A stretch of DNA of 35,246 nucleotides from Candidatus Omnitrophota bacterium (GTDB taxonomy: Bacteria > Omnitrophota > Gorgyraeia > Zapsychrales > Fredricksoniimonadaceae): positions 1 through 35,246 of the forward strand of contig JABDFL010000010.1 in the NCBI GenBank assembly GCA_013286575.1. The letters run 5' to 3'. Under the pieces are notes generated by a model. It did not search any database and was not told the origin of the DNA. It worked only from the letters and a program-made list of their open reading frames with translations. This document shows, in pieces, positions 1-20,851 of the stretch. How positions within the stretch are numbered: position 1 is the stretch's first letter; each line of letters opens with the position of its first letter. The translations under genes and the position numbers were made by a program.

Positions 1-305
1 AGAATTTCGCCCAATTGCGCCAAGTCTACAATTCTCTTATCCTGGCCACATGGTATAAAAAGAAAATCAAAGACAGCATTTTAGCGCAGGTTTATGAGAA
101 CAGGAATAAAGTCGCAGGAGTCAATATCAACGACCCCTTGGAAAAACAGAAGATATATGAGCGCTATCTGCAGGCATTTAAGAAGGGCGTCTACAACTAC
201 ATCAAAGAAGAGACCGACCCGCTGATATCTCTAAAGCAGGTTGTCCAAATTTTGGCGCAATCATTGCCAAATCCAAGCCTCCTGAAAAATATTTCCTCGG
301 GATAA
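1..305 (+). pseudogene. 3' part of the conserved N-terminal module of a large Omnitrophota-type protein; 5' end outside window, frame interrupted by TAA at 303-305
   Basis: Frame is open from the window edge (NFAQLRQVYNSLILATWYKKKIKDSILAQVY...YLQAFKKGVYNYIKEE) and aligns with NFAQLRQIVSGMILATWYKRALKESLLGKIY...YLKAFKKGVYNYIKED in the 13292-20851 protein. The TTG at 15 is internal, not a real start. Confidence 0.7.
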
Positions 306-341
306 CCTGCTGCGTCAGCGGATCCGGCGCAAGTTTCAGAA

Positions 342-3300
342 TTGGATTACAATGCGTTTTTAGTGGATGTTGATGCAAGCCCTGTGGGAATTAGCTTTAA
401 TAATGATTTTGCAATGGCATCAAAAGAGGCAAGGCGTGTTTTAAAAGAAGGTGATGATTTGTTAGGAGTTTTACAAGAATACATTGATGAACATATTAGA
501 AATCTTAAGACGTACGCACAAGATACAGATTATAAACTACTGGAAACGTTTAAAATCTTTTCAGATGCGAATAAACGTTATCGCACGCCCCGAAGGGAAA
601 TTTTGGAAAAACTCAGAGGGATGATTTCAGAAGAGCTGAAAAGATCAGCAGAAAAGCATTTTTCTCCAGAGCGGACAGTTACGGCAATTTTGGAATCCGA
701 AGGCACTATATTAGATGCGAAAGATATTGAATATCTGTATAGGGAACGTTTCGGGATGGGTGATGGAATTAAAAGCGTTAAGCAGATGGGTTATATTTTG
801 GAAAGGTATTATACCGGGGTTCCTTTTCTCAGAAAAATGTTAGATAAGGGGGTGGTAGGTCCCCAAACGATTTTGACCCTTCCTCCTGTACGGGTTGATG
901 AATTGTTGATTTGCTTAGACGCATTCTCTAAAAGGGAAGAGCTTTTGGATGTTGAAAAAGGTACGTTTTTATTTGGTATGCCAAATTTAAAACATGTAAT
1001 AGCATCAGACACGGATAATTTTTTAGAAGCTGCAGAAATTTTGAATGAGGCCTACAACGATGTCATAAGTGCTTATGATTTTTTAGTATTCGAGAAAAAA
1101 TTATCTTCTGCCGTGATTGATGAAAATTTTTATTTGAATCCAAAGAATTTTGTTTTTGCTATGTCTATATTGGGAAAACTTATCCAATCCCAGGAAGGAA
1201 AGGCCCGGATTGAGAAATATTTAAAAGGTAATAAGATCGATATTGAGGGCATCCTCAGAGATCACCCAAGTTCGGGTCAGGAAATAAGCGCTGCCAGAGG
1301 AAGCGTAAAATTCGTTGATCACCCTGTAAATACGGCCCCGGAAGACTTGGCTGCTTGGATGCGAGAGGTGAAGGCGAAGGGTGTTTTATCCCAAACAGTC
1401 GCTGATTTTCAAGCATTATGGTCGCAACACAGCCATTGCCCTGCCTTGGTTTTTCCGGAGACTTTAATAGAAAAAATCGTTGATAAAATTTCTATTTTGG
1501 ATTCACCTATTCTTCTCCAAGTCATGTTTGGGGATTTTCATCCGGATGTTATTGCCGCATTGAAAAATAGCGGCGTTCATTTTAGCCCTGAAGAAGAAAA
1601 TTTTATATGGAGAGTTTTCCAGCAAAAATATCCTGCCTGGGTTAACAGGGATTATTACCTTTTAGATCAAAGGGATTTTATCGGCGAATTTCTTAAAAGT
1701 AAACCCGTTGTTTCTTTGCTTGATATCGGATCCGGATCCAATGGGGAAGCTCTTGCTAAAATCAAGGAGCTTTACGGGGAAAAGCTGGATGCGGTAGGGT
1801 TAGATATGAATATTGATGAAGAAAATATTGCTCGCCAATATGGTGTAAAGTTGGTGCAGGGAGATGTCCGGCGTATGGAATTCGATAATGATTCCTTTGA
1901 TATTATTAATGAATATAAATTGATGGGTTATTTCCCCTCTTTACATGAAACCGTGAGTATATTACGGGAAATCATGCGTGTTTTAAGAGTAAACGGTGTT
2001 TTTATTTTTACAGATAGCTATAATTTTTACAAAGACGAGGCAAGATTGAGAACAATTTTAAATGGGTTAGGCTATGAGGTCAATATTCAAAAGGGGATGG
2101 CAGAGGCGCTTTATATCCGTAAAATGTCTTATAAAAGGCCAAATGGAAGTGCACAAGCCGTTATAAGCAATATTGAAGAAAGTTTAGTAGCAATAAATCC
2201 GACAAAAGATAAACCGACGTCTCAGGACCAGGCGATGAATGCGCGTACTCAACGGATTATCATGAGGAACTGGCCGTTTAATATGCCATTAAGGGATCAA
2301 CGCAAAATGTTGAGTATTTTGGAGGCTTGGACGAATAAAGTTTATTTATTCAACAGGGATTCTCAGTTCATTCGTAACTATGGGTTTAGTGCTGGAGATT
2401 ATGCGAGTGCTTTACATTATATTTTGTATATTATAATCAAAAATGAAAAAAGATTTAAACAACTTGACCTCACAAAGCATGGCCAATTCGTGGATATAAA
2501 GGGCCGGCAAAGCGATGTTGAGCTGTTAGTGACTGAATTTAAGAAAGTCGTCCCTAAAATTGAAGCCGGGATGAATGATCAGATCATAAAACGATTTGCC
2601 AGGGCTATGGCTATGCTTCTGACGAGGCAGAGCAGTTTTGAATTTTCTGATCAAAATTCGGAACCAAACCCAGAACCAATGAGTAAAATAAAGCTGGAAC
2701 AATCAGGCCCTGGACAGCTAACACTTTCCTTTCCTGAAAGCTTTCAGATGTCGACCTCTGATGTGTTGTATTTATTAAGAAGGTGGTTTTCCTTTAAATT
2801 TGAGGGAAAACTAACTGTTGTCGCCGGTGAACAGCCGAACACCTTTATTATCAAAAAAAGATCTAAAACCGGATCATGGGCGCCTTATCGAAGATCCTTA
2901 CAAAGAAATTTTATTAAACGTGTGCAAGATGCGGCGATGAATGTCAGTACTGCGACGAATCAATGGTCAGAATATTTTTTTCCTAAGCCTATTGATGCAC
3001 AGGTTTATAGCTATGCTGAGAAATTAATTCTTCAACAGGCGCATTTCAATCCCCAAACGGAAGGCAAAGAGATTGCTGCAGAGCAGGGATATTTAAGGTT
3101 GACCATATTTGGTAATAGTTTTGCCCAGGTTTATGATCAGGCAAGGGCTGATTACCTGGATTCTTTTCAAAAATACGGCTATGGGATGAGCCAATCAGGT
3201 TTCGCCTATAGTTTACTGGCTCATGCGGGGTTTGAAGCTACAGCCATGCCGAGGCTTAATTATTATTGGGAAATAAGTGATTTCGTGACCAAGCATAGTG

Positions 3301-4442
3301 ATTTTTATGTTCAACACAACGCCACACTGACATTTCCCGACCTCCAATACCTTTTTGGCTACCGTTCCACTCGATTTGAGGCCTTTTATAACCAGTTGGC
3401 GGCCCTTAGAAAAAGCGGTATTACCCATGAAAAAGTAGTAGAGACGATGGAAACCTTCTTGAAAGATACAGCTTATGCGGAATTGACCCTTTTTGTTCAA
3501 CGTAATAGGCACAGTGACTCCACCTATCGGCGCTGGGAAGGTGGTTCTCCTGAAACAGTGGCTCCTAAGCACGATAATCCTTATTTTATCGGGTTTTTAA
3601 AATTTCTTTTGCAATATAAGGCCAGCGAGGCATTTGCCAATTGGAAAAGGATCATTGCAGAAGGGGCCCATTATACAAGCACCAAGACAGATGAAGAATT
3701 AGTAACAGTATTGGGAAAAGAACAAGATGTGGTGGTTCTAACAAAAAATCAGGAAGCCGTAAGAGGCATGATTAGATTAACCATAGAAGCGTTAAATGAT
3801 CTGGACCTGGTTAATGCGAGAAGATTGTTAGAAAAAATTACTCATCATTATGAGACAGACATAAGCGAAGAGCAGAAGCCCATCTTAGTAAATTTATTAA
3901 CAGACTACAACAGGCTTTTTGGTAAATATAAAGAAGCGAAAAATGAGCCATTCATTATCAGGGAAGCTCATGAAGAATCTTTTACTGTTTTGGGTGTGAT
4001 GAAAAATCTGGTAACTGCATCTTTGCTTGCGGAAGCTTATAGAAATCAAATGAAAGCCAATCATCCAGATGCTGTAGGTGGCAATGTAAAAACTGCGGAT
4101 GAAATTGCCAAAACCATCAATAATGCAAGGGAGGAATTAAGAAAAGCATTAAATGCAAAAGTAGAACGAGCGAAAGCAAGGTCTGTCCAATTTCCAGATC
4201 AAGCAATGGTTGCAAAAGAGAATGAGGTCCACAGAAGCGATACAGGCGGTATCGATTTAACCTCTGACAAAGCCCTATCCGTTCAAAACAACGGCCAGGG
4301 GATTAAATTCCGTGTTGACCCCGCGATGCTTGAGCAATTGCAAAACGCCCCTGGCTTTACGCCGGTGATTATCAGCATCCAGCCGATGACCAACATCAGG
4401 GCCTTCTTAGGCCTTAAAGAAGATCCCCAGTCAATAGCATGA
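342..4442 (+). CDS. Large multidomain protein (remainder of the same gene, same frame as 1-305) with methyltransferase-like and J-domain-like segments and a C-terminal GGIDL module
   Basis: 1366-codon ORF. The frame continues upstream (PAASADPAQVSELDYNAF) directly from the TAA at 303, so this is probably one gene with an interruption. Confidence 0.8.
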   Translation: MDYNAFLVDVDASPVGISFNNDFAMASKEARRVLKEGDDLLGVLQEYIDEHIRNLKTYAQDTDYKLLETFKIFSDANKRYRTPRREILEKLRGMISEELKRSAEKHFSPERTVTAILESEGTILDAKDIEYLYRERFGMGDGIKSVKQMGYILERYYTGVPFLRKMLDKGVVGPQTILTLPPVRVDELLICLDAFSKREELLDVEKGTFLFGMPNLKHVIASDTDNFLEAAEILNEAYNDVISAYDFLVFEKKLSSAVIDENFYLNPKNFVFAMSILGKLIQSQEGKARIEKYLKGNKIDIEGILRDHPSSGQEISAARGSVKFVDHPVNTAPEDLAAWMREVKAKGVLSQTVADFQALWSQHSHCPALVFPETLIEKIVDKISILDSPILLQVMFGDFHPDVIAALKNSGVHFSPEEENFIWRVFQQKYPAWVNRDYYLLDQRDFIGEFLKSKPVVSLLDIGSGSNGEALAKIKELYGEKLDAVGLDMNIDEENIARQYGVKLVQGDVRRMEFDNDSFDIINEYKLMGYFPSLHETVSILREIMRVLRVNGVFIFTDSYNFYKDEARLRTILNGLGYEVNIQKGMAEALYIRKMSYKRPNGSAQAVISNIEESLVAINPTKDKPTSQDQAMNARTQRIIMRNWPFNMPLRDQRKMLSILEAWTNKVYLFNRDSQFIRNYGFSAGDYASALHYILYIIIKNEKRFKQLDLTKHGQFVDIKGRQSDVELLVTEFKKVVPKIEAGMNDQIIKRFARAMAMLLTRQSSFEFSDQNSEPNPEPMSKIKLEQSGPGQLTLSFPESFQMSTSDVLYLLRRWFSFKFEGKLTVVAGEQPNTFIIKKRSKTGSWAPYRRSLQRNFIKRVQDAAMNVSTATNQWSEYFFPKPIDAQVYSYAEKLILQQAHFNPQTEGKEIAAEQGYLRLTIFGNSFAQVYDQARADYLDSFQKYGYGMSQSGFAYSLLAHAGFEATAMPRLNYYWEISDFVTKHSDFYVQHNATLTFPDLQYLFGYRSTRFEAFYNQLAALRKSGITHEKVVETMETFLKDTAYAELTLFVQRNRHSDSTYRRWEGGSPETVAPKHDNPYFIGFLKFLLQYKASEAFANWKRIIAEGAHYTSTKTDEELVTVLGKEQDVVVLTKNQEAVRGMIRLTIEALNDLDLVNARRLLEKITHHYETDISEEQKPILVNLLTDYNRLFGKYKEAKNEPFIIREAHEESFTVLGVMKNLVTASLLAEAYRNQMKANHPDAVGGNVKTADEIAKTINNAREELRKALNAKVERAKARSVQFPDQAMVAKENEVHRSDTGGIDLTSDKALSVQNNGQGIKFRVDPAMLEQLQNAPGFTPVIISIQPMTNIRAFLGLKEDPQSIA
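1698..2130 (+). other. Class I SAM-dependent methyltransferase-like domain inside the large ORF
   Basis: LLDIGSGSNGEALAKIKELYG...VGLDMN...VKLVQGDVRRMEFDNDSFDIINEYKLMGYF...LREIMRVLRVNGVFIFTDS: motif I, acidic residue after beta2, D-V motif and post-motif 'RVLRVNGVFIF'. Confidence 0.75.
3975..4180 (+). other. J-domain-like segment with HPD motif
   Basis: FTVLGVMKNLVTASLLAEAYRNQMKANHPDAVGGNVKTADEIAKTINNAREELRKAL: YR..(M)K.NHPD..GG....AK.INNAREELRK pattern of DnaJ J-domains. Confidence 0.65.
4245..4442 (+). other. C-terminal GGIDL module shared with the 13292-20851 protein
   Basis: GGIDLTSDKALSVQNNGQGIKFRVDPAMLEQLQNAPGFTPVIISIQPMTNIRAFLGL versus GGIDLNSANLNLEIKRDGRGVPLPLADQDMAQLSRIQGFEPEIIDIRPAADLPILREL. 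Confidence 0.75.
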
Positions 4443-13291: not shown

Positions 13292-16200
13292 ATGTCAGGA
13301 TCATCTAAACTCTTTAAAGACATTATAAGCTGTTGGCTTATTGTGGCGTTTTTAGGCCTTTCGGTGTATGTCCCGCAAGCCCAGGCAGAAGATTTTGCTT
13401 CTACGCTTTTGCGATCCAAGGAACAGGGAATATTGGTCCATTTAAGTCCTGCCTACATTCCTGCTCACCTGATGGGGATGAGTATTCATACGGATAATCC
13501 TTTAAAATTTGACTTTTTAATCCATAAAGGTGATGGGAGTTTAAGCGGTACCCAGAAAAAGCAGGAATACACCAGGTTGGTCAAATATTTTTTGGCTTCA
13601 TTGACCATCCCTGATAAAGACCAGTGGGTCAACCTGTCTCCCTATGAGCATAATCGCATTATAGCGGATAATTTTGGCAAGACCGAGATGGGCCATGATC
13701 TTTTAGGCCAGGATTATTTATTGAAGCAAATGACATCTTCCCTGATGTATCCCGAATCCGGTTTAGGCAAGAGTTTTTGGAACGAAGTCTATTCAAAAGC
13801 CTGGACTGAATTTCATACAACCAATATTCCGGTCAATACCTTTAATAAGGTCTGGATAGTCCCTGACCAGGCCACTGTTTATGAAAGTGGTAATACGGCC
13901 TATATCATTCAAAGCCATTTGAAGGTGATGTTGGAAGAAGATTATCTGTCTTTGTCTAAACACGTATCAACCAGTACGCACACCATTGGTTCCCAAGTTA
14001 TCCGGGAAATCATCCTTCCCGCCCTGGAAAAAGAAGTCAACGAAGGCAAAAACTTTGCCCAATTGCGCCAAATCGTCAGCGGCATGATACTCGCCACTTG
14101 GTATAAAAGAGCACTTAAAGAATCCTTGCTTGGAAAAATTTATGCCGATAAGGGCAAGGTCAAGGGGGTGGACCAGGACCCGAGGACCAATGAAGAAATT
14201 TATCAGCAGTATCTGAAGGCTTTTAAAAAAGGCGTGTATAACTACATCAAAGAGGATGAAGATAAATATACTCATCAATCAATTCCAAGGAAGTATTTCT
14301 CAGGGGGATTTAATAGGGCGGCAGTTTCCATCGTTAAGGATATACCTGACAATTTGGTGCTCACGGTCCGGGATGAGTGGGCAAATGCAGCAATGGTGAT
14401 TGATAGGGCGATGGTAAATATATTGCCTTCAGCACAAGCGGCGAATGCGGCGGTGGCTTCCCGTAGAGCCATGGGACAAAGGTTGAAAGGAATAATGGCT
14501 TGGGTTTCATCTAATGTAAAATCCACCAGACGGTTGCCAGGCACAAACATAGTTGCTTTTGATTATAAAAAAGAAGGGCTGCGCCGTTTGGCTCAAGTAA
14601 CTATAGAAAATATAAATGCAAAGGAACAATCCCAGCCCAAGAATGTAAGGAATTATCTGATTGAAACAGTATTTAATAGTTATGTAGATCGGATAACAAC
14701 AGAGGATGCTCCTGCTTTTGCCCAGGTGTTAAATGAAGAATGGAGAGCCTCTGGTTTTAATGAAAGGTACGGGCCGCTTTTTGATTGGATCGTTCTTAGC
14801 ATGGGCGCTCAGGGAGGGTCTGTCAGCAGGGTTAAATATACTTATCAATGGATCTATCGCTTTTTAGAAGGCGGGAGTCCTTTAGAAAGGGCGTTTGGGT
14901 TATGGTTACTGGTAGTTGGGAATGTGTCCCATTTGCGGGAGCAAGGCCTGCACCCGGAATCTGATAAAAAAGGCGGCAGATTAATATATGCGGATAATAA
15001 TTTGATCATTGGTGATGGTTTAAATCCCGGAATTTTACGGGAATATATTCAATCAATATTGCGGCTAAATGAAATGGGGGAGCTTACTGAAGTATTGTCG
15101 GGGCCTGACGGAAATCCTAATACATTGGGGTTGACTCCAAAAGATTTTTTATTGTGGGGACTGGTTTTAGCTGCAGACCCCTCTATCCATGCGCCGTTTG
15201 AATATTTTAGTGACGCTAAATTGCATACATTGCAGGATATATTTGGGAAAGATATGACTTTTGATAAAGTTATGGTCAAAAGTTTGGAAAAAGCTTTCAG
15301 TCATATACCTAAAAATAGTTTAAAAGAGATACAGCCTTTACTGATGGAAGCATTTTCTGTAACAGATGAACAATGGGCAGTCAAAGGCTTCAAGTCTCCT
15401 TATTTTTACGGGTCTATTGATTTTATAAATAATTTGGTGAGATCTGATGATTTTCAAAATGATGTTTTTTGGCAAACTTATCCGTTAATGGATAGATTTA
15501 AAATGTTTCCGTTTTTGAGGAAATATTTACCCGCTTATAAAGTAGTCAGGGGTTTGATCGAGGCAAGGGATATTTTTGAAATAGACCACGACCAGAGCAT
15601 ATATAGAAACCTGGCCGTAAAACAAAATCCTGACGGGCTTAGAAAATTCTATGCGCAGACCTTCACGTCACGGCCTTTGGCGGTGCTTTTGCCGGATGTT
15701 GCCGCTGTATTTGATAAAGAAAAACAAGACGCGGCGATGCAAACGGATTCAACAGGCTCAAATGCGCCGAGTGGGCCTTATCGTGAACTTGACGGAGGAA
15801 GCAGGTTAATAAAAATTACTCCCAATGTGAATGCGTTCATTAACCGTATTAAAGCTAAAAAAGAAGGTGAGCGCCTTCAGGGCGCATTTAGAATTACATT
15901 TTCTTTAGAGGATCTCGGCATTATCGAGAGCTTCCCGATAGCAGGCATGTTGAATTATCATTATCAAAAATATGTGAATAACGTCCCTCAAGATGGCTAC
16001 GTAGACGTGTATGTTACGGATGCCTTATATAGAAAGAGTGTTCCAAGGATTGACTTTAAGATAAGGAAAGGCATTTCCAGCATACTGGTTTCAATCAATC
16101 CTTCCTATATCATAAGAATCGAAAAGGTTGATACAGTGCCTGAAGCGGTTTTTAAAAGCACGATGGTGGCTGAAATCCTCCAGACCAGCCAGGATTTGCC

Positions 16201-19200
16201 CAGCAAAGAGGCAATTATGGCTACGTTAAAAAACGTCAGCCTCGAAGAGTTTATTAGAAACATCGGTGAATGGTTAAACAAAAAACCTTTAATTACAAAA
16301 TTAATAGTACAGGCGCTATTAAAACAACGCCCCGGCATAATAAATTTCTTTCGCCCCATTGATCCTTATTTTAAGGAAGCCTTAGGCCTTAGATTTGACG
16401 CGGCGATGAGTGGTCCGTCAAGATTAGCGGAAAGATTTTCTGAGATTATAAATCAATTGAGCCGTTCATTCTATCCGAGGGACGCAAGAAAAAGCGGGTT
16501 ATTCAGGGAAAGCTTTAGGGGATTTCTTGACGAAATAGACCGGGGCCTTCCTTCCGTTGTTGCAAGGTCAATCAACAGGCGCTCTCTGGTGAGTATCGCA
16601 TTCGAATTCCACGCCCTTTTTCAGACTCAATTTTTATTGGATTATCTTCCTGATGCAATGGAAGTTTTGAAAGCTACCGCCCGAAGGAGTGCCAGTAAAT
16701 TTTCAGGAAATAAAATTTTACTTATGTACCAATTGGAATGGGACCTTGTTGCTGCCCATTACCTGAAGTTGGTAGGTAAAAAATTAGTTGAACGTAATGG
16801 TTTGGGCAGCTTTGTGCGGGTGAATAAATTAAGTAAAGGGGAAACCGCAATTGTCGATCTGATCCATACCATTTGGGTCCAATCAATGGGGGCAAAATAT
16901 GCAGCTACTAAAGGCGTGCTTTCAGGTTATTACCATGATCCCGGCCCTATGGGTTTGGATACTTGGGAACAAGTAGCGGAGTTATTAAAGTACATTAATG
17001 GAATTTGTGACCAAGAAGAAGTTATGTCTTTTTTATCTTCATTAGATGAGCTTTCCAGCGCCAAAGAAATGGACAGGCCCAGGCATTTGGAAATCGTTGT
17101 TCCAACAATCCTAATGACGGTAATCCCGCTTTTGCTCGGGAAAAGAAAAAATAGCATTCTTAAACCTCAAACAGATCAATTTGATCATTTAAGAGCCAGG
17201 CTTAACCGGCTTGTTAACAGGATGAACCGTTTGATTATAACAAAGCCCAACGGAAACAGAGATCCCGATTTGGTAAGAGAGTATGAAAGGCAAGTAAACG
17301 GTATTTTGGAAGAATTCTTTGTAGAAAGGCATTATTTGTCATTTAGTCAATACAGTTCCAATATGCTTTGGGGATTGAGGGAAGATCTCCGGACGGCACA
17401 AATTATTTTGGAAGTGCCGGATTTTTATGAATCAAATGGGAATGACATTAATGAGGTAATCAATTATATATTATGGATTGAAAAAACCCAAAATCGGGAT
17501 TTCTCTATGACGGCAGAGGAAGGTCAAGCTCAGATAAATAAGGACGCGGCGATGAATGTTGAGAACATAACATTAACAGATGATTTGAGGTCCAAGTTAG
17601 CTGCCACGGTCAACTCGCTATTTAAGGATGGGCGGACCAGAAAATCATTGAGGACGCTGGGTTTAAAAACGCTTTTGGATATCGTCATTGAAGAGGAAGG
17701 ATTTTTCCCTGATGAAATCAGGCAGGGTGTAAAAGCTATCGTAGATAAGCCTCCTTTTTCTTTCCACGCTGCCAGATCACAAAATAATAATATAGAAGCT
17801 TCAACGTCAGTCTGGAGTTTTTTGATGATCGTCAGGCAAGACTTGATCAAAGGTGCAGAATTAGGGGGCGCAGAAGCTCAAGATTTTGCGGAAGATAAAA
17901 AAGGGATCCAACAAACAACAAGGTCAATTATCGGCAAATTGGTCTTACAGGGGATAAAAACGGTGGGAGAGTTTAAATTTAAAGACAGGAACGATTTGAA
18001 AGAAGGGAAAGAGGGATTAACGGATGAGGAGACAGCTTTTTTAGCTGAACAGTTAAGAAAATATGGATTTCATCTAAAGGGAGAGGAGCCTGTCATCGAA
18101 CAGGTTGCCGTAATTCCGAGGGTTAAAAGAATAATACCTGCAGGGCCGATCAGCCTTGAATTAGAATTGGAAGCCGTAGATATGCCTGCTTCCATAAGAG
18201 GCATGATAGAAAAGATCGGGGCAGTGCCGGGAATTGAACGGGTGATCCAAGGCATGTATTCAGCGCATGCCAAGCGGGCCATTGACATATTGAAATGCGC
18301 GTCAAAATTGATCGATGAAGGCTATCTTTTAGTAGCTTTTGACTTGAATTTCGACATAGATCAAAACAATGGAAGGTTGCATATAGATATAGCGGCCAAG
18401 CACCCATCACCTATAGGAATGAAAACAAAAATAGATCTTTTCAATGTGGTCGATCCCCGGCCCAGGGTGCGTATGAACACTGAGCTTTATGAATATGGAT
18501 ATCCAGAAAAATGGGTCCAGTCAAACATACTCCAGGCACATACAGAATTACAAATGGAGAAATTCCTTAAGAAACTAAGCAGTGACGACGCTTACGGAAC
18601 ATTGCTGAACAGGCAATTAATAACACAATTAGGTGAAAACAACGGTCAAATAGTATTCGAATATTTTACGGGGTCGCCCAAAATCGGTATTTTTTATGTT
18701 GCACCGTACTCGGCGGGTTTTATTTATGTAGACGGGTTGGAGTACATTTATATCAGAAGATCAAGCGCTCCTTTGAGAGTTATGAACGCATTTTATGATG
18801 GCGATTTTCTTCCTAAGATCGTTCAGGAAGAGCTTGATCTTATGGACAATGTTTGTGCGAAGGCTTCTTTAGTAATAACTCAAAATGATAAACAAAGGCA
18901 TGTTAACGTAGGTCTTGTATATGTCCCATTATCTCTGAACACGGAAGAAACAAGTTTTGTTAAGAAACAGGCCAGGTACAGCCAAAGCAAGGCCAATGCC
19001 CAACCGACCATTGTCATTCTTGAAGATGATGCTGTTTTAGGGCAACTCCTGCAAAGAGATTGGCAAATAGAAGTTAATAATATGTTTGGAGAAGGCAAGG
19101 TGGGCGTGCAATGGGCCAAGACTGTCAAATATGCGAGGGAAATCCTTGAGTCATATCATGTTGCTTTAGTTGTTGCTGATACTGAGAATAGAGGTAGCCA

Positions 19201-20851
19201 ACAATGGATCGATTTTGTCCGGAAGAGAGCGGAAGAAGGCTTGATAAGTTCCCCTATTTTTGGTTCTAGTAAAAATAGTTTGAGATCATCAGAGTGGCCC
19301 TCAGTAAACGGTTTCGTCGGAGTGCTGGCGAAGCCATATGGTCCTGATGATATCCATGAAGCTTTGTTTAAAGTGGCTAAGAGTATTGAAAAGAGAATAG
19401 ATCTATATGAGCGATTTTTGTCTGCAGCATCTGTTGAGGCTGACAGGGCGATGAATGTTTCGGATATTTTGAACAAGCCCGGGCAGTGGCAGGACAGAGA
19501 AATCATAAGGATGAAAACAACGGCATTGCATCAATTGTCAAAAGAAGTGGATGCAAGTCGGCTATCGTTTGAGCACATACTTAAGGACAATAAATCTGTA
19601 CGACCCGAAGAAAGGGAGGTTTTTGAAGAAAATATTAAACGGCTAAAAAGCGGACTTAATAGGATTCGCACGCAAATCCTTGCCAGGGCGTTGTTAGAAG
19701 CGGTGGTTGAAAGAAGCGCTTTTGAAGCTGTGCCGCAATTCCGGGACGGCGGGGCCATATTTGACAAATTGGTCGAACGCGGCTATTTGAAAACCCGGTT
19801 TAAGGGAAAAAGCATCGCTGAGGCTAAACTATATGGTGTGCCCAGCGTTGATGATATTTTGAATATTTCTGAAGGAAGCATTTCTTATGAGGATGCTGAG
19901 AGGGCTGTCGGGATATTGCAGGAATCTTTGGGAGACCAGCCTTGGCGGAGTTTTGGAATGTTAATCAGTGATTATACTGCGCCGAAGGGCTTCGAAAGCG
20001 CCATAGCGACAAATCAAAAGCTTGACGTGTTAAGATTTTGGGCTGAAGAATTAAAAACAAAGGTAGTCAAGTTTCGGCGGCTAAGGACGATGCTCAGTCC
20101 ATCGGATGAGGAAGTTCAGGAATTTGATATTCAGGAAGATGCGGTCGCAGATGCTTTAGCCATAATTGATAAAGTGATCAAGCAATATGGGAACGCCTTT
20201 GCCAATGCCCGGATCATAGAAGTATCGGGAAAGGGTGAAACAAGCAAAAACAGCGGGACGAATAATGAGGATGTCGAAAAGGATGAAAAAGCTTTAATGG
20301 TTTTGAAGAATTTTTTAGACTGGCGAAAGATCGAGAAAGGGAACAAGGATTTAACGGAATTGATCGTTTTTTTAAAGCAATCAAGTCTTGGGGACCTGGA
20401 AAAGTGGAGATTTTTATTAAAACAAAAAAGATACGGCAAGGCCCCTGAAATGGGCCTGGTCTCTTTTCGCGTCTATCAAATGTTTATGCGGGAAAACCTT
20501 TTGGGCGCTGTCACCAATGAGCTTGTTGAACGAAGAATTGAATTTAGAATCCAGGCATTCAATGAGACCAGGCAGAAGGCTGCTGCAGCCGCAGCGATAG
20601 AAGATGCTGCAATGAGCAGTGATGAAAACCCCGGTGGTATTGATTTAAACTCCGCGAATTTGAATTTGGAAATTAAGCGTGATGGCCGTGGGGTGCCTTT
20701 GCCGTTGGCCGATCAGGACATGGCGCAATTAAGCCGCATCCAGGGCTTTGAGCCGGAAATTATTGATATTAGACCGGCCGCTGATTTGCCTATCTTAAGG
20801 GAGCTGCAGCAAAAATTGCAATCCGCTTCTGTTGTTTCCATCGGAAAGTAA
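13292..20851 (+). CDS. Giant (about 2519 aa) secreted multidomain protein with Omnitrophota-type N-terminal module, repeated DxAM seams, receiver-like domain and C-terminal GGIDL module
   Basis: ORF open 13181-20851. Best start is ATG 13292, giving signal peptide MSGSSKLFKDIISCWLIVAFLGLSVYVPQAQA-ED. Shares N- and C-terminal modules with the 1-4442 gene. Confidence 0.88.
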   Translation: MSGSSKLFKDIISCWLIVAFLGLSVYVPQAQAEDFASTLLRSKEQGILVHLSPAYIPAHLMGMSIHTDNPLKFDFLIHKGDGSLSGTQKKQEYTRLVKYFLASLTIPDKDQWVNLSPYEHNRIIADNFGKTEMGHDLLGQDYLLKQMTSSLMYPESGLGKSFWNEVYSKAWTEFHTTNIPVNTFNKVWIVPDQATVYESGNTAYIIQSHLKVMLEEDYLSLSKHVSTSTHTIGSQVIREIILPALEKEVNEGKNFAQLRQIVSGMILATWYKRALKESLLGKIYADKGKVKGVDQDPRTNEEIYQQYLKAFKKGVYNYIKEDEDKYTHQSIPRKYFSGGFNRAAVSIVKDIPDNLVLTVRDEWANAAMVIDRAMVNILPSAQAANAAVASRRAMGQRLKGIMAWVSSNVKSTRRLPGTNIVAFDYKKEGLRRLAQVTIENINAKEQSQPKNVRNYLIETVFNSYVDRITTEDAPAFAQVLNEEWRASGFNERYGPLFDWIVLSMGAQGGSVSRVKYTYQWIYRFLEGGSPLERAFGLWLLVVGNVSHLREQGLHPESDKKGGRLIYADNNLIIGDGLNPGILREYIQSILRLNEMGELTEVLSGPDGNPNTLGLTPKDFLLWGLVLAADPSIHAPFEYFSDAKLHTLQDIFGKDMTFDKVMVKSLEKAFSHIPKNSLKEIQPLLMEAFSVTDEQWAVKGFKSPYFYGSIDFINNLVRSDDFQNDVFWQTYPLMDRFKMFPFLRKYLPAYKVVRGLIEARDIFEIDHDQSIYRNLAVKQNPDGLRKFYAQTFTSRPLAVLLPDVAAVFDKEKQDAAMQTDSTGSNAPSGPYRELDGGSRLIKITPNVNAFINRIKAKKEGERLQGAFRITFSLEDLGIIESFPIAGMLNYHYQKYVNNVPQDGYVDVYVTDALYRKSVPRIDFKIRKGISSILVSINPSYIIRIEKVDTVPEAVFKSTMVAEILQTSQDLPSKEAIMATLKNVSLEEFIRNIGEWLNKKPLITKLIVQALLKQRPGIINFFRPIDPYFKEALGLRFDAAMSGPSRLAERFSEIINQLSRSFYPRDARKSGLFRESFRGFLDEIDRGLPSVVARSINRRSLVSIAFEFHALFQTQFLLDYLPDAMEVLKATARRSASKFSGNKILLMYQLEWDLVAAHYLKLVGKKLVERNGLGSFVRVNKLSKGETAIVDLIHTIWVQSMGAKYAATKGVLSGYYHDPGPMGLDTWEQVAELLKYINGICDQEEVMSFLSSLDELSSAKEMDRPRHLEIVVPTILMTVIPLLLGKRKNSILKPQTDQFDHLRARLNRLVNRMNRLIITKPNGNRDPDLVREYERQVNGILEEFFVERHYLSFSQYSSNMLWGLREDLRTAQIILEVPDFYESNGNDINEVINYILWIEKTQNRDFSMTAEEGQAQINKDAAMNVENITLTDDLRSKLAATVNSLFKDGRTRKSLRTLGLKTLLDIVIEEEGFFPDEIRQGVKAIVDKPPFSFHAARSQNNNIEASTSVWSFLMIVRQDLIKGAELGGAEAQDFAEDKKGIQQTTRSIIGKLVLQGIKTVGEFKFKDRNDLKEGKEGLTDEETAFLAEQLRKYGFHLKGEEPVIEQVAVIPRVKRIIPAGPISLELELEAVDMPASIRGMIEKIGAVPGIERVIQGMYSAHAKRAIDILKCASKLIDEGYLLVAFDLNFDIDQNNGRLHIDIAAKHPSPIGMKTKIDLFNVVDPRPRVRMNTELYEYGYPEKWVQSNILQAHTELQMEKFLKKLSSDDAYGTLLNRQLITQLGENNGQIVFEYFTGSPKIGIFYVAPYSAGFIYVDGLEYIYIRRSSAPLRVMNAFYDGDFLPKIVQEELDLMDNVCAKASLVITQNDKQRHVNVGLVYVPLSLNTEETSFVKKQARYSQSKANAQPTIVILEDDAVLGQLLQRDWQIEVNNMFGEGKVGVQWAKTVKYAREILESYHVALVVADTENRGSQQWIDFVRKRAEEGLISSPIFGSSKNSLRSSEWPSVNGFVGVLAKPYGPDDIHEALFKVAKSIEKRIDLYERFLSAASVEADRAMNVSDILNKPGQWQDREIIRMKTTALHQLSKEVDASRLSFEHILKDNKSVRPEEREVFEENIKRLKSGLNRIRTQILARALLEAVVERSAFEAVPQFRDGGAIFDKLVERGYLKTRFKGKSIAEAKLYGVPSVDDILNISEGSISYEDAERAVGILQESLGDQPWRSFGMLISDYTAPKGFESAIATNQKLDVLRFWAEELKTKVVKFRRLRTMLSPSDEEVQEFDIQEDAVADALAIIDKVIKQYGNAFANARIIEVSGKGETSKNSGTNNEDVEKDEKALMVLKNFLDWRKIEKGNKDLTELIVFLKQSSLGDLEKWRFLLKQKRYGKAPEMGLVSFRVYQMFMRENLLGAVTNELVERRIEFRIQAFNETRQKAAAAAAIEDAAMSSDENPGGIDLNSANLNLEIKRDGRGVPLPLADQDMAQLSRIQGFEPEIIDIRPAADLPILRELQQKLQSASVVSIGK
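18995..19395 (+). other. Response-regulator receiver-like domain inside the giant ORF
   Basis: TIVILEDDAVLGQLLQRDW...VALVVADTENRGSQQWIDFVRKRAEEGLISSPIFGSS...VLAKPYGPDDIHEALFKVAKSI: acidic pair EDD, candidate phospho-Asp in VVAD, conserved K in AKPY. Confidence 0.7.
20633..20851 (+). other. C-terminal GGIDL module (paralogous to 4245-4442)
   Basis: GGIDLNSANLNLEIKRDGRGVPLPLADQDMAQLSRIQGFEPEIIDIRPA. Confidence 0.75.

What the first reader, a model, noticed from the sequence alone, without database searches (positions are those of the whole stretch)
1..4442. Shared N-terminal and C-terminal 'bookend' modules around unrelated middles
The 1-4442 and 13292-20851 genes share an N-terminal module (NFAQLRQ...ILATWYK...AFKKGVYNYIKE) and a C-terminal GGIDL...P.II.I.P module, but their interiors differ. 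This resembles a constant-ends/variable-middle architecture such as polymorphic toxins or exported cargo systems. Here the middles contain apparently cytoplasmic-type domains (methyltransferase, J-domain, receiver) behind a signal peptide.
Basis: partly seen in the sequence, partly recalled or inferred. Interest (0 to 1): 0.75.

Follow-up and report, generated by a model that had tools for sequence, protein, structure and literature searches.

The report
Exported bacterial proteins with tetrapeptide punctuation
Omnitrophota bacteria carry dozens of exported proteins that share the same two ends but hold almost unrelated enzyme modules in between, separated by a short genome-specific motif (usually Asp-x-Ala-Met) that looks like a cutting site, so these may be bacterial polyproteins.

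Summary
The bookends are real and belong to a large family. The N-module is about 340 aa including the signal peptide. It occurs about 25 times in this half-complete genome and in 52 of 55 searched genomes, all from its order. It matches no Pfam or NCBIfam family and no PDB fold. Nearly every complete copy ends in a GGID C-module. The middles are nearly all different: 43 of 15,400 pairs share homology.

It occurs 361 times against 21 expected, marks the edges of homologous modules, and is kept in orthologs whose linkers diverged. It varies by genome: DxAM only; D/N/S-x-AM; or SSP[VAIL] with no DxAM. That suggests a recogniser acting in trans, most simply a protease; cleavage itself is not shown.

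Middles are 11-fold poorer in cysteine than neighbouring proteins and under purifying selection. Two carry aldolase, TIM and GAPDH behind a signal peptide, with no mature cysteine except two at the GAPDH active site. Streptomyces plasmid homologs are surface-anchored with toxin-like domains.

Window gene 1 lacks most of its N-module and is interrupted by an in-frame TAA.

The parts
3..302 (+). C-terminal end of the gene 1 N-module (rest lies off the contig)
   Evidence: 57% identity to gene 2 over 72 aa, E 3e-27
303..305 (+). in-frame TAA separating the N-module remnant from the gene 1 body; disrupted gene or assembly error
306..4442 (+). gene 1 body (first TTG at 342)
405..416 (+). DFAM motif
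1719..2009 (+). methyltransferase module (PF08241)
   Evidence: E 6.5e-11
2226..2237 (+). DQAM motif
2928..2939 (+). DAAM motif
3981..4145 (+). possible J-domain (PF00226, below Pfam cut-off)
   Evidence: E 1.1e-4, 22.6 bits vs 27.8
4197..4208 (+). DQAM motif just upstream of the C-module
4245..4439 (+). gene 1 C-module (GGIDL...)
13292..20851 (+). gene 2, complete bookended precursor (ORF open from 13181)
13292..13387 (+). signal peptide ...YVPQAQA|ED
   Evidence: sequence
13388..14308 (+). mature N-module; AF2 pLDDT 82, pTM 0.83; no PDB or BFVD fold match
14402..14413 (+). DRAM motif after the N-module
15728..15739 (+). DAAM motif; ends the only module (res ~517-843) with a homolog in a congener
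16397..16408 (+). DAAM motif
17543..17554 (+). DAAM motif
19442..19453 (+). DRAM motif
20603..20614 (+). DAAM motif just upstream of the C-module
20633..20848 (+). gene 2 C-module (GGIDLNSANLNLEIKRDGRG...)

Best explanation
These genes encode exported multi-module precursor proteins (candidate polyproteins). A Sec-type signal peptide and a constant N-module of a fold with no match in PDB lead, a GGID C-module closes, and between them sit independently folding cargo modules joined by linkers that carry a short punctuation motif ([DN]-x-A-M in most of this order, SSP[VAIL] in other lineages). Shown: the architecture, the copy number, the variability of cargo, the motif, its position at module boundaries, its conservation, its genome-specific variants, the cysteine depletion and purifying selection. 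Inferred: export itself (signal peptides and cysteine loss), and that the motif is cut by a dedicated protease acting in trans, releasing cargo outside the cell or in a prey or host cell, perhaps between A and M. No protease was identified and no cleavage was observed. The destination and role of the cargo are open; delivery to prey or host is suggested by the predatory or parasitic lifestyle proposed for most of this phylum.
For: Family: about 25 N-modules in a 1.32-Mb, 52%-complete genome; 52/55 genomes of the 'relatives' search; 90/285 genomes of the phylum sample; 120/134 complete ORFs carry a C-module by HMM. Motif: D.AM 361 vs 20.9 expected in middles (17x), N.AM 5.5x, S.AM 2.4x, other first residues at or near 1x (H 1.8x on 10 counts), neighbours 0.97x; D.AL 0.88x and D.GM 0.43x, so A and M are required. 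Boundaries: ends of homologous segments lie near motifs 40 times vs 18.3+-3.6 by chance, and motifs lie inside segments 12 vs 36.4+-5.4; L193 has an extra ~200-aa module between two motifs compared with L190; in L209 a duplicated module is flanked by motifs. Position: within 80 aa after the N-module in 94/159 and within 30 aa before GGID in 50/140. Conservation: kept in L092/L116 while the linker diverged; D/N swap in L190/L193. Dialects: SSP[VAIL] 26 vs DxAM 0 in two genomes against 13:361 in the rest (Fisher 2e-31); D vs N/S 46:46 in one congener and 53:3 in another (3e-9). Linker composition: fewer hydrophobics within 10 aa. Export: signal peptides 144/158; cysteine 0.108% vs 1.216% in neighbours and 0.616% in neighbours with a signal peptide. 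Selection: pN 0.18 vs pS 0.73 in the L092/L116 middle. Met of 'NKAM' aligns with the initiator Met of standalone enolase.
Against: No cleavage data and no candidate protease. 30 of 156 longer middles have no DxAM and 54 of 140 C-modules have no recognisable motif variant just upstream, so the motif is not obligatory. Several genomes show neither dialect, though few of their proteins were sampled. Motif alanines lean to GCG (47% vs 29% for other Ala-Met and 25% for all Ala), which leaves a small DNA-level component unexplained. Fisher tests count motifs, not independent events. Genomes are incomplete MAGs.
Confidence: 0.6

Rival explanations
1. Uncut multidomain exported or surface proteins: the motif is a docking or hinge signal in linkers (bound by a scaffold, chaperone or modifying enzyme), and modules work as beads on a string.
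For: Giant ORFs in Omnitrophota have been interpreted as coats or adhesins (PMC10066038). The Streptomyces homologs keep cargo next to the anchor. A bound motif would also show dialects.
Against: Strict need for D, A and M fits cutting or binding but not a generic hinge. Motifs also separate the bookends from the cargo. TM-like segments are rare in middles (28 in 171,237 aa vs 551 in 214,275 aa of neighbours).
Confidence: 0.2
2. A polymorphic-toxin or effector system in the strict sense: cargo modules are antagonistic domains injected into competitors or prey, the bookends are trafficking domains.
For: Streptomyces homologs have toxin-like N-terminal domains by eye and LAxTG-like or TM anchors. 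Some cargo is effector-like (Fic, AvrB_AvrC, protein kinase, PP2C). The phylum is proposed to be predatory or parasitic (PMC10066038).
Against: Most recognised cargo is metabolic or regulatory (enolase, TIM, GAPDH, aldolase, PGM, hexokinase, HTH, HATPase, receiver). Several modules per protein, C-terminus constant, no immunity gene recognised in this window.
Confidence: 0.1
3. Motifs are fossils of DNA recombination seams or gene fusions, without function of their own.
For: GCG bias of motif alanines; Met of the motif aligns with the start Met of enolase.
Against: No extended DNA similarity around motifs and Asp codons near background; motif kept while flanks diverge and D/N exchanged; genome-specific variants across unrelated cargo.
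Confidence: 0.08

Closest known systems
Giant ORFs of Omnitrophota (PMC10066038; Lipocone paper PMC12419801)
   Same: Same phylum; large, poorly conserved proteins with few recognisable domains; the Lipocone paper lists methylases and histidine kinase-receiver domains in gigantic Omnitrophota proteins
   Different: Those are defined by length (>20 kb ORFs) and often have TM helices; here about 2-18 kb, few TM segments. In the passages read neither paper describes bookends or inter-module motifs
Surface-anchored toxin-like proteins on Streptomyces plasmids (e.g. WP_121549542.1, annotated hypothetical)
   Same: Homologous N-module core (hhalign 99.8%, E 2.8e-30 over 215 columns), GG[IV]D motifs, signal peptide, variable cargo
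   Different: Cargo precedes the N-module, one cargo region, C-terminal LAxTG-like or TM anchor, no DxAM seen
Viral and eukaryotic polyproteins or prohormone precursors
   Same: Several functional modules in one chain, separated by a recurrent short motif
   Different: Bacterial, exported; protease unknown; cleavage not shown; motif differs between genomes
Mitochondrial TPI-GAPDH fusions of eukaryotes (PMC3527533)
   Same: TIM and GAPDH in one targeted polypeptide
   Different: Here with aldolase (and enolase in one), behind a bacterial signal peptide, apparently permuted TIM, cysteine-depleted

Membership tests
Polymorphic toxin systems | constant N-terminal trafficking region with variable C-terminal toxin tip | tested here: not met
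   N-terminus constant, but the C-terminus is constant too; cargo lies between
Polymorphic toxin systems | cognate immunity gene next to the toxin gene | tested here: inconclusive
   window neighbours are ligA, recombinase, rbfA-truB-ribF and the dcw cluster; three small ORFs have no Pfam match
Type IX secretion cargo | C-terminal CTD (Por_Secre_tail or TIGR families) | tested here: not met
   no such Pfam or NCBIfam hit
LPXTG, LAxTG or PEP-CTERM anchored proteins | C-terminal sorting motif, TM helix and basic tail | tested here: not met
   Omnitrophota C-modules lack it by inspection and no NCBIfam hit; seen by eye in Streptomyces homologs
Polyprotein | several modules separated by a recurrent short recognition motif | tested here: met
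Polyprotein | proteolytic release at the motif | not testable with these tools
   no proteomic data; protease unknown
Omnitrophota giant ORFs | ORF longer than 20 kb | tested here: not met
   own-genome family ORFs up to 3212 aa, some open-ended; longest listed in relatives 5839 aa
Known protein families (Pfam, NCBIfam, PDB) | N-module matches an existing family or fold | tested here: not met
   no family hit, no Foldseek hit with E<=0.001 in PDB or BFVD

The most novel reading that the evidence does not exclude
Bacteria that export a block of lower glycolysis on one processed polypeptide. L154 and L203, from two genera, share a signal peptide, the N-module, an apparently circularly permuted TIM, GAPDH and an unknown module, plus an aldolase (class I FBA in L203, DeoC-type with enolase in L154), and are 50% identical over 1532 aa. 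They would work outside the cell or in a prey or host cell, and be cut apart by a protease whose recognition motif has changed between lineages.
Probability: 0.35. Interest if true: 0.95.

Novelty: categorically new. Interest (0 to 1): 0.85.

Why it matters
If the motif is a processing site, this is a large family of bacterial polyproteins, a format known mainly from viruses and eukaryotic precursors, and it gives the poorly understood large proteins of Omnitrophota a testable logic: cut at the motif and study the modules. The genome-specific variants offer a natural experiment for finding the recogniser. Cytosol-type enzymes, including glycolytic ones, with signal peptides and almost no cysteine raise the question of where they act. 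The N-module is a new domain shared with toxin-like surface proteins of Streptomyces.

Tried and rejected
Internal translation starts at the motif Met: Shine-Dalgarno-like sequence upstream in only 9/91 and 10/183 cases. DNA-level seam: little information outside the D, A and M codons. Decay of cargo: strong purifying selection in three pairs. C-module as a known sorting domain: no family hit; AF2 model too weak to search. N-module as a known fold: no PDB or BFVD match. Orthologs of the window middles in congeners: one 334-aa patch for gene 2, none for gene 1. Papers: no Omnitrophota polyprotein found. One search failed on a wrong frame and was redone. Pfam searches of the window family gave few cargo hits, so wider samples were scanned.

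Full report
Observation. Gene 2 (13292-20851) is a complete protein with a signal peptide, N-module and C-module. Gene 1 is truncated by the contig start and interrupted by TAA at 303-305. The N-module similarity is strong; the C-module similarity is weak pairwise but firm at family level. The interiors show no significant similarity to each other.

Family. The N-module has about 25 copies in this half-complete genome, matches no Pfam or NCBIfam family, and its AF2 model (pLDDT 82, pTM 0.83) has no PDB or BFVD match at E<=0.001. It is found in 52 of 55 searched genomes of the same genus, family and order and in 90 of 285 genomes sampled across the phylum; the copy numbers are capped at about eight scored candidates and are lower bounds. 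The 80 best loci of the genome-contig scan are nearly all labelled Omnitrophota. Of 134 complete N-module ORFs in the pooled set, 120 have a C-module by HMM; some of the rest look frameshifted.

Variable middles. Only 43 of 15,400 pairs of middles share BLAST homology. Gene 1's middle has no match in six congeners and gene 2's has one 334-aa patch. Recognised cargo includes methyltransferases, GNAT, PLD, phosphoribosyltransferase, HTH regulators, UDPGP, PGM/PMM, HATPase, receiver, GGDEF, HAD, MutS_V, enolase, TIM, aldolase, hexokinase, HPr, ACP, NUDIX, Fic, AvrB, kinase and PP2C. Most middle sequence matches nothing.

Punctuation. In the own genome D-x-A-M occurs 102 times in family ORFs against 5.1+-2.2 in shuffles and never in 25,741 aa of neighbours; ten of the 102 are D-P-A-M, mostly inside C-modules. 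In the pooled middles it is 361 vs 20.9. N.AM and S.AM are also enriched; changing A or M abolishes the enrichment. The motif marks the ends of homologous modules and avoids their interiors, sits in hydrophobic-poor linkers, follows the N-module and precedes the C-module, and survives divergence of its linker in orthologs. It is a protein-level motif: Asp codons are near background and there is no Shine-Dalgarno signal, but motif alanines prefer GCG, only partly a context effect of Ala-Met.

Dialects. Families outside the order use SSP[VAIL] instead: SSP 48 vs 4.8, D.AM 1 vs 1.6. Among the loci of the 80-locus scan two genomes use SSP[VAIL] (26) and no DxAM; one congener uses D and N/S equally, another D almost only. 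These counts are motifs, not independent events, and several genomes rest on one or two proteins. Still, one dialect across unrelated cargo within a genome points to a recogniser acting in trans.

Export. Signal-peptide-like starts are found in 144 of 158 by a home-made rule. Middles hold 0.108% cysteine against 1.216% in neighbours. In L154 and L203 the only cysteines after the signal peptide are two at the GAPDH active site (CQSTSC, CHTGSC); the standalone TIM and enolase of related genomes have one to three each.

Glycolytic cargo. L154 (3071 aa) carries TIM, a GAPDH N-domain, a DeoC-type aldolase and enolase; its enolase is 49% identical to a standalone one, with the initiator Met aligned to the Met of NKAM. 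L203 (2319 aa) carries TIM, GAPDH and class I FBA. They align at 50% over 1532 aa. Their TIM appears circularly permuted, the NWK segment following the rest; for L154 this rests on a weak HMM second domain (0.1 bits), the conserved motif and the ortholog, so it is likely rather than proven. L202 carries a TIM in normal order. In the family-wide search only these two proteins match over the whole TIM-GAPDH-unknown stretch; a third genome (G011) has a 1347-aa frame matching part of it. Nearly all genomes of the family that were searched also encode a separate full-length TIM and enolase. Catalytic residues were judged by eye.

Streptomyces. Six plasmids encode about 770-840-aa proteins with a homologous N-module core after a variable N-terminal domain and before an LAxTG-like or TM anchor. 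The N-terminal domains look deaminase-like or nuclease-like by motif only (no Pfam hit). Their GGIDF start resembles the Omnitrophota C-module weakly (hhalign probability 38%, E 3e-4).

Known work. Omnitrophota giant ORFs and a predatory or parasitic lifestyle are described (PMC10066038), and gigantic Omnitrophota proteins mixing methylases, kinase-receiver domains and peptidases (PMC12419801).

Noticed in passing
N- and C-modules of L015, L023, L025, L076, L117, L174 and others: Palindromic repeat elements (ATTCCCGCNNNNGCGGGAAT; read as VIPAKAGIQ or, on the other strand, DSRFRGND) are inserted in frame in loops of the bookends, 15 of 18 in the N-module, reminiscent of Rickettsia palindromic elements (from memory).
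   Followed up: partly
L154, L203: TIM modules with the N-terminal NWK segment after the rest of the barrel: apparent natural circular permutation.
   Followed up: partly
L023:1818-6638 (-): A second bookended gene split by an in-frame stop codon, like window gene 1; some relatives also have stops inside the N-module.
   Followed up: no
L209, L210, L211: Three IMG/VR 'viral' contigs carry bookended genes; possibly host contigs misbinned as viral.
   Followed up: no
L212-L217: Streptomyces plasmid proteins with toxin-like N-terminal domains, N-module homolog and surface anchor, annotated hypothetical.
   Followed up: partly
window:21023-35246: dcw cluster (mraZ, mraW, ftsI, mur ligases, mraY, ftsW, murG) directly after gene 2; the bookended genes lie among housekeeping operons, not on an evident mobile island.
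   Followed up: partly
L120 (G125): GGIDL occurs three times in one protein (positions 688, 1145, 1773), so the GGID element can be internal.
   Followed up: no
L105: A record labelled Elusimicrobia carries the N-module; label not checked.
   Followed up: no
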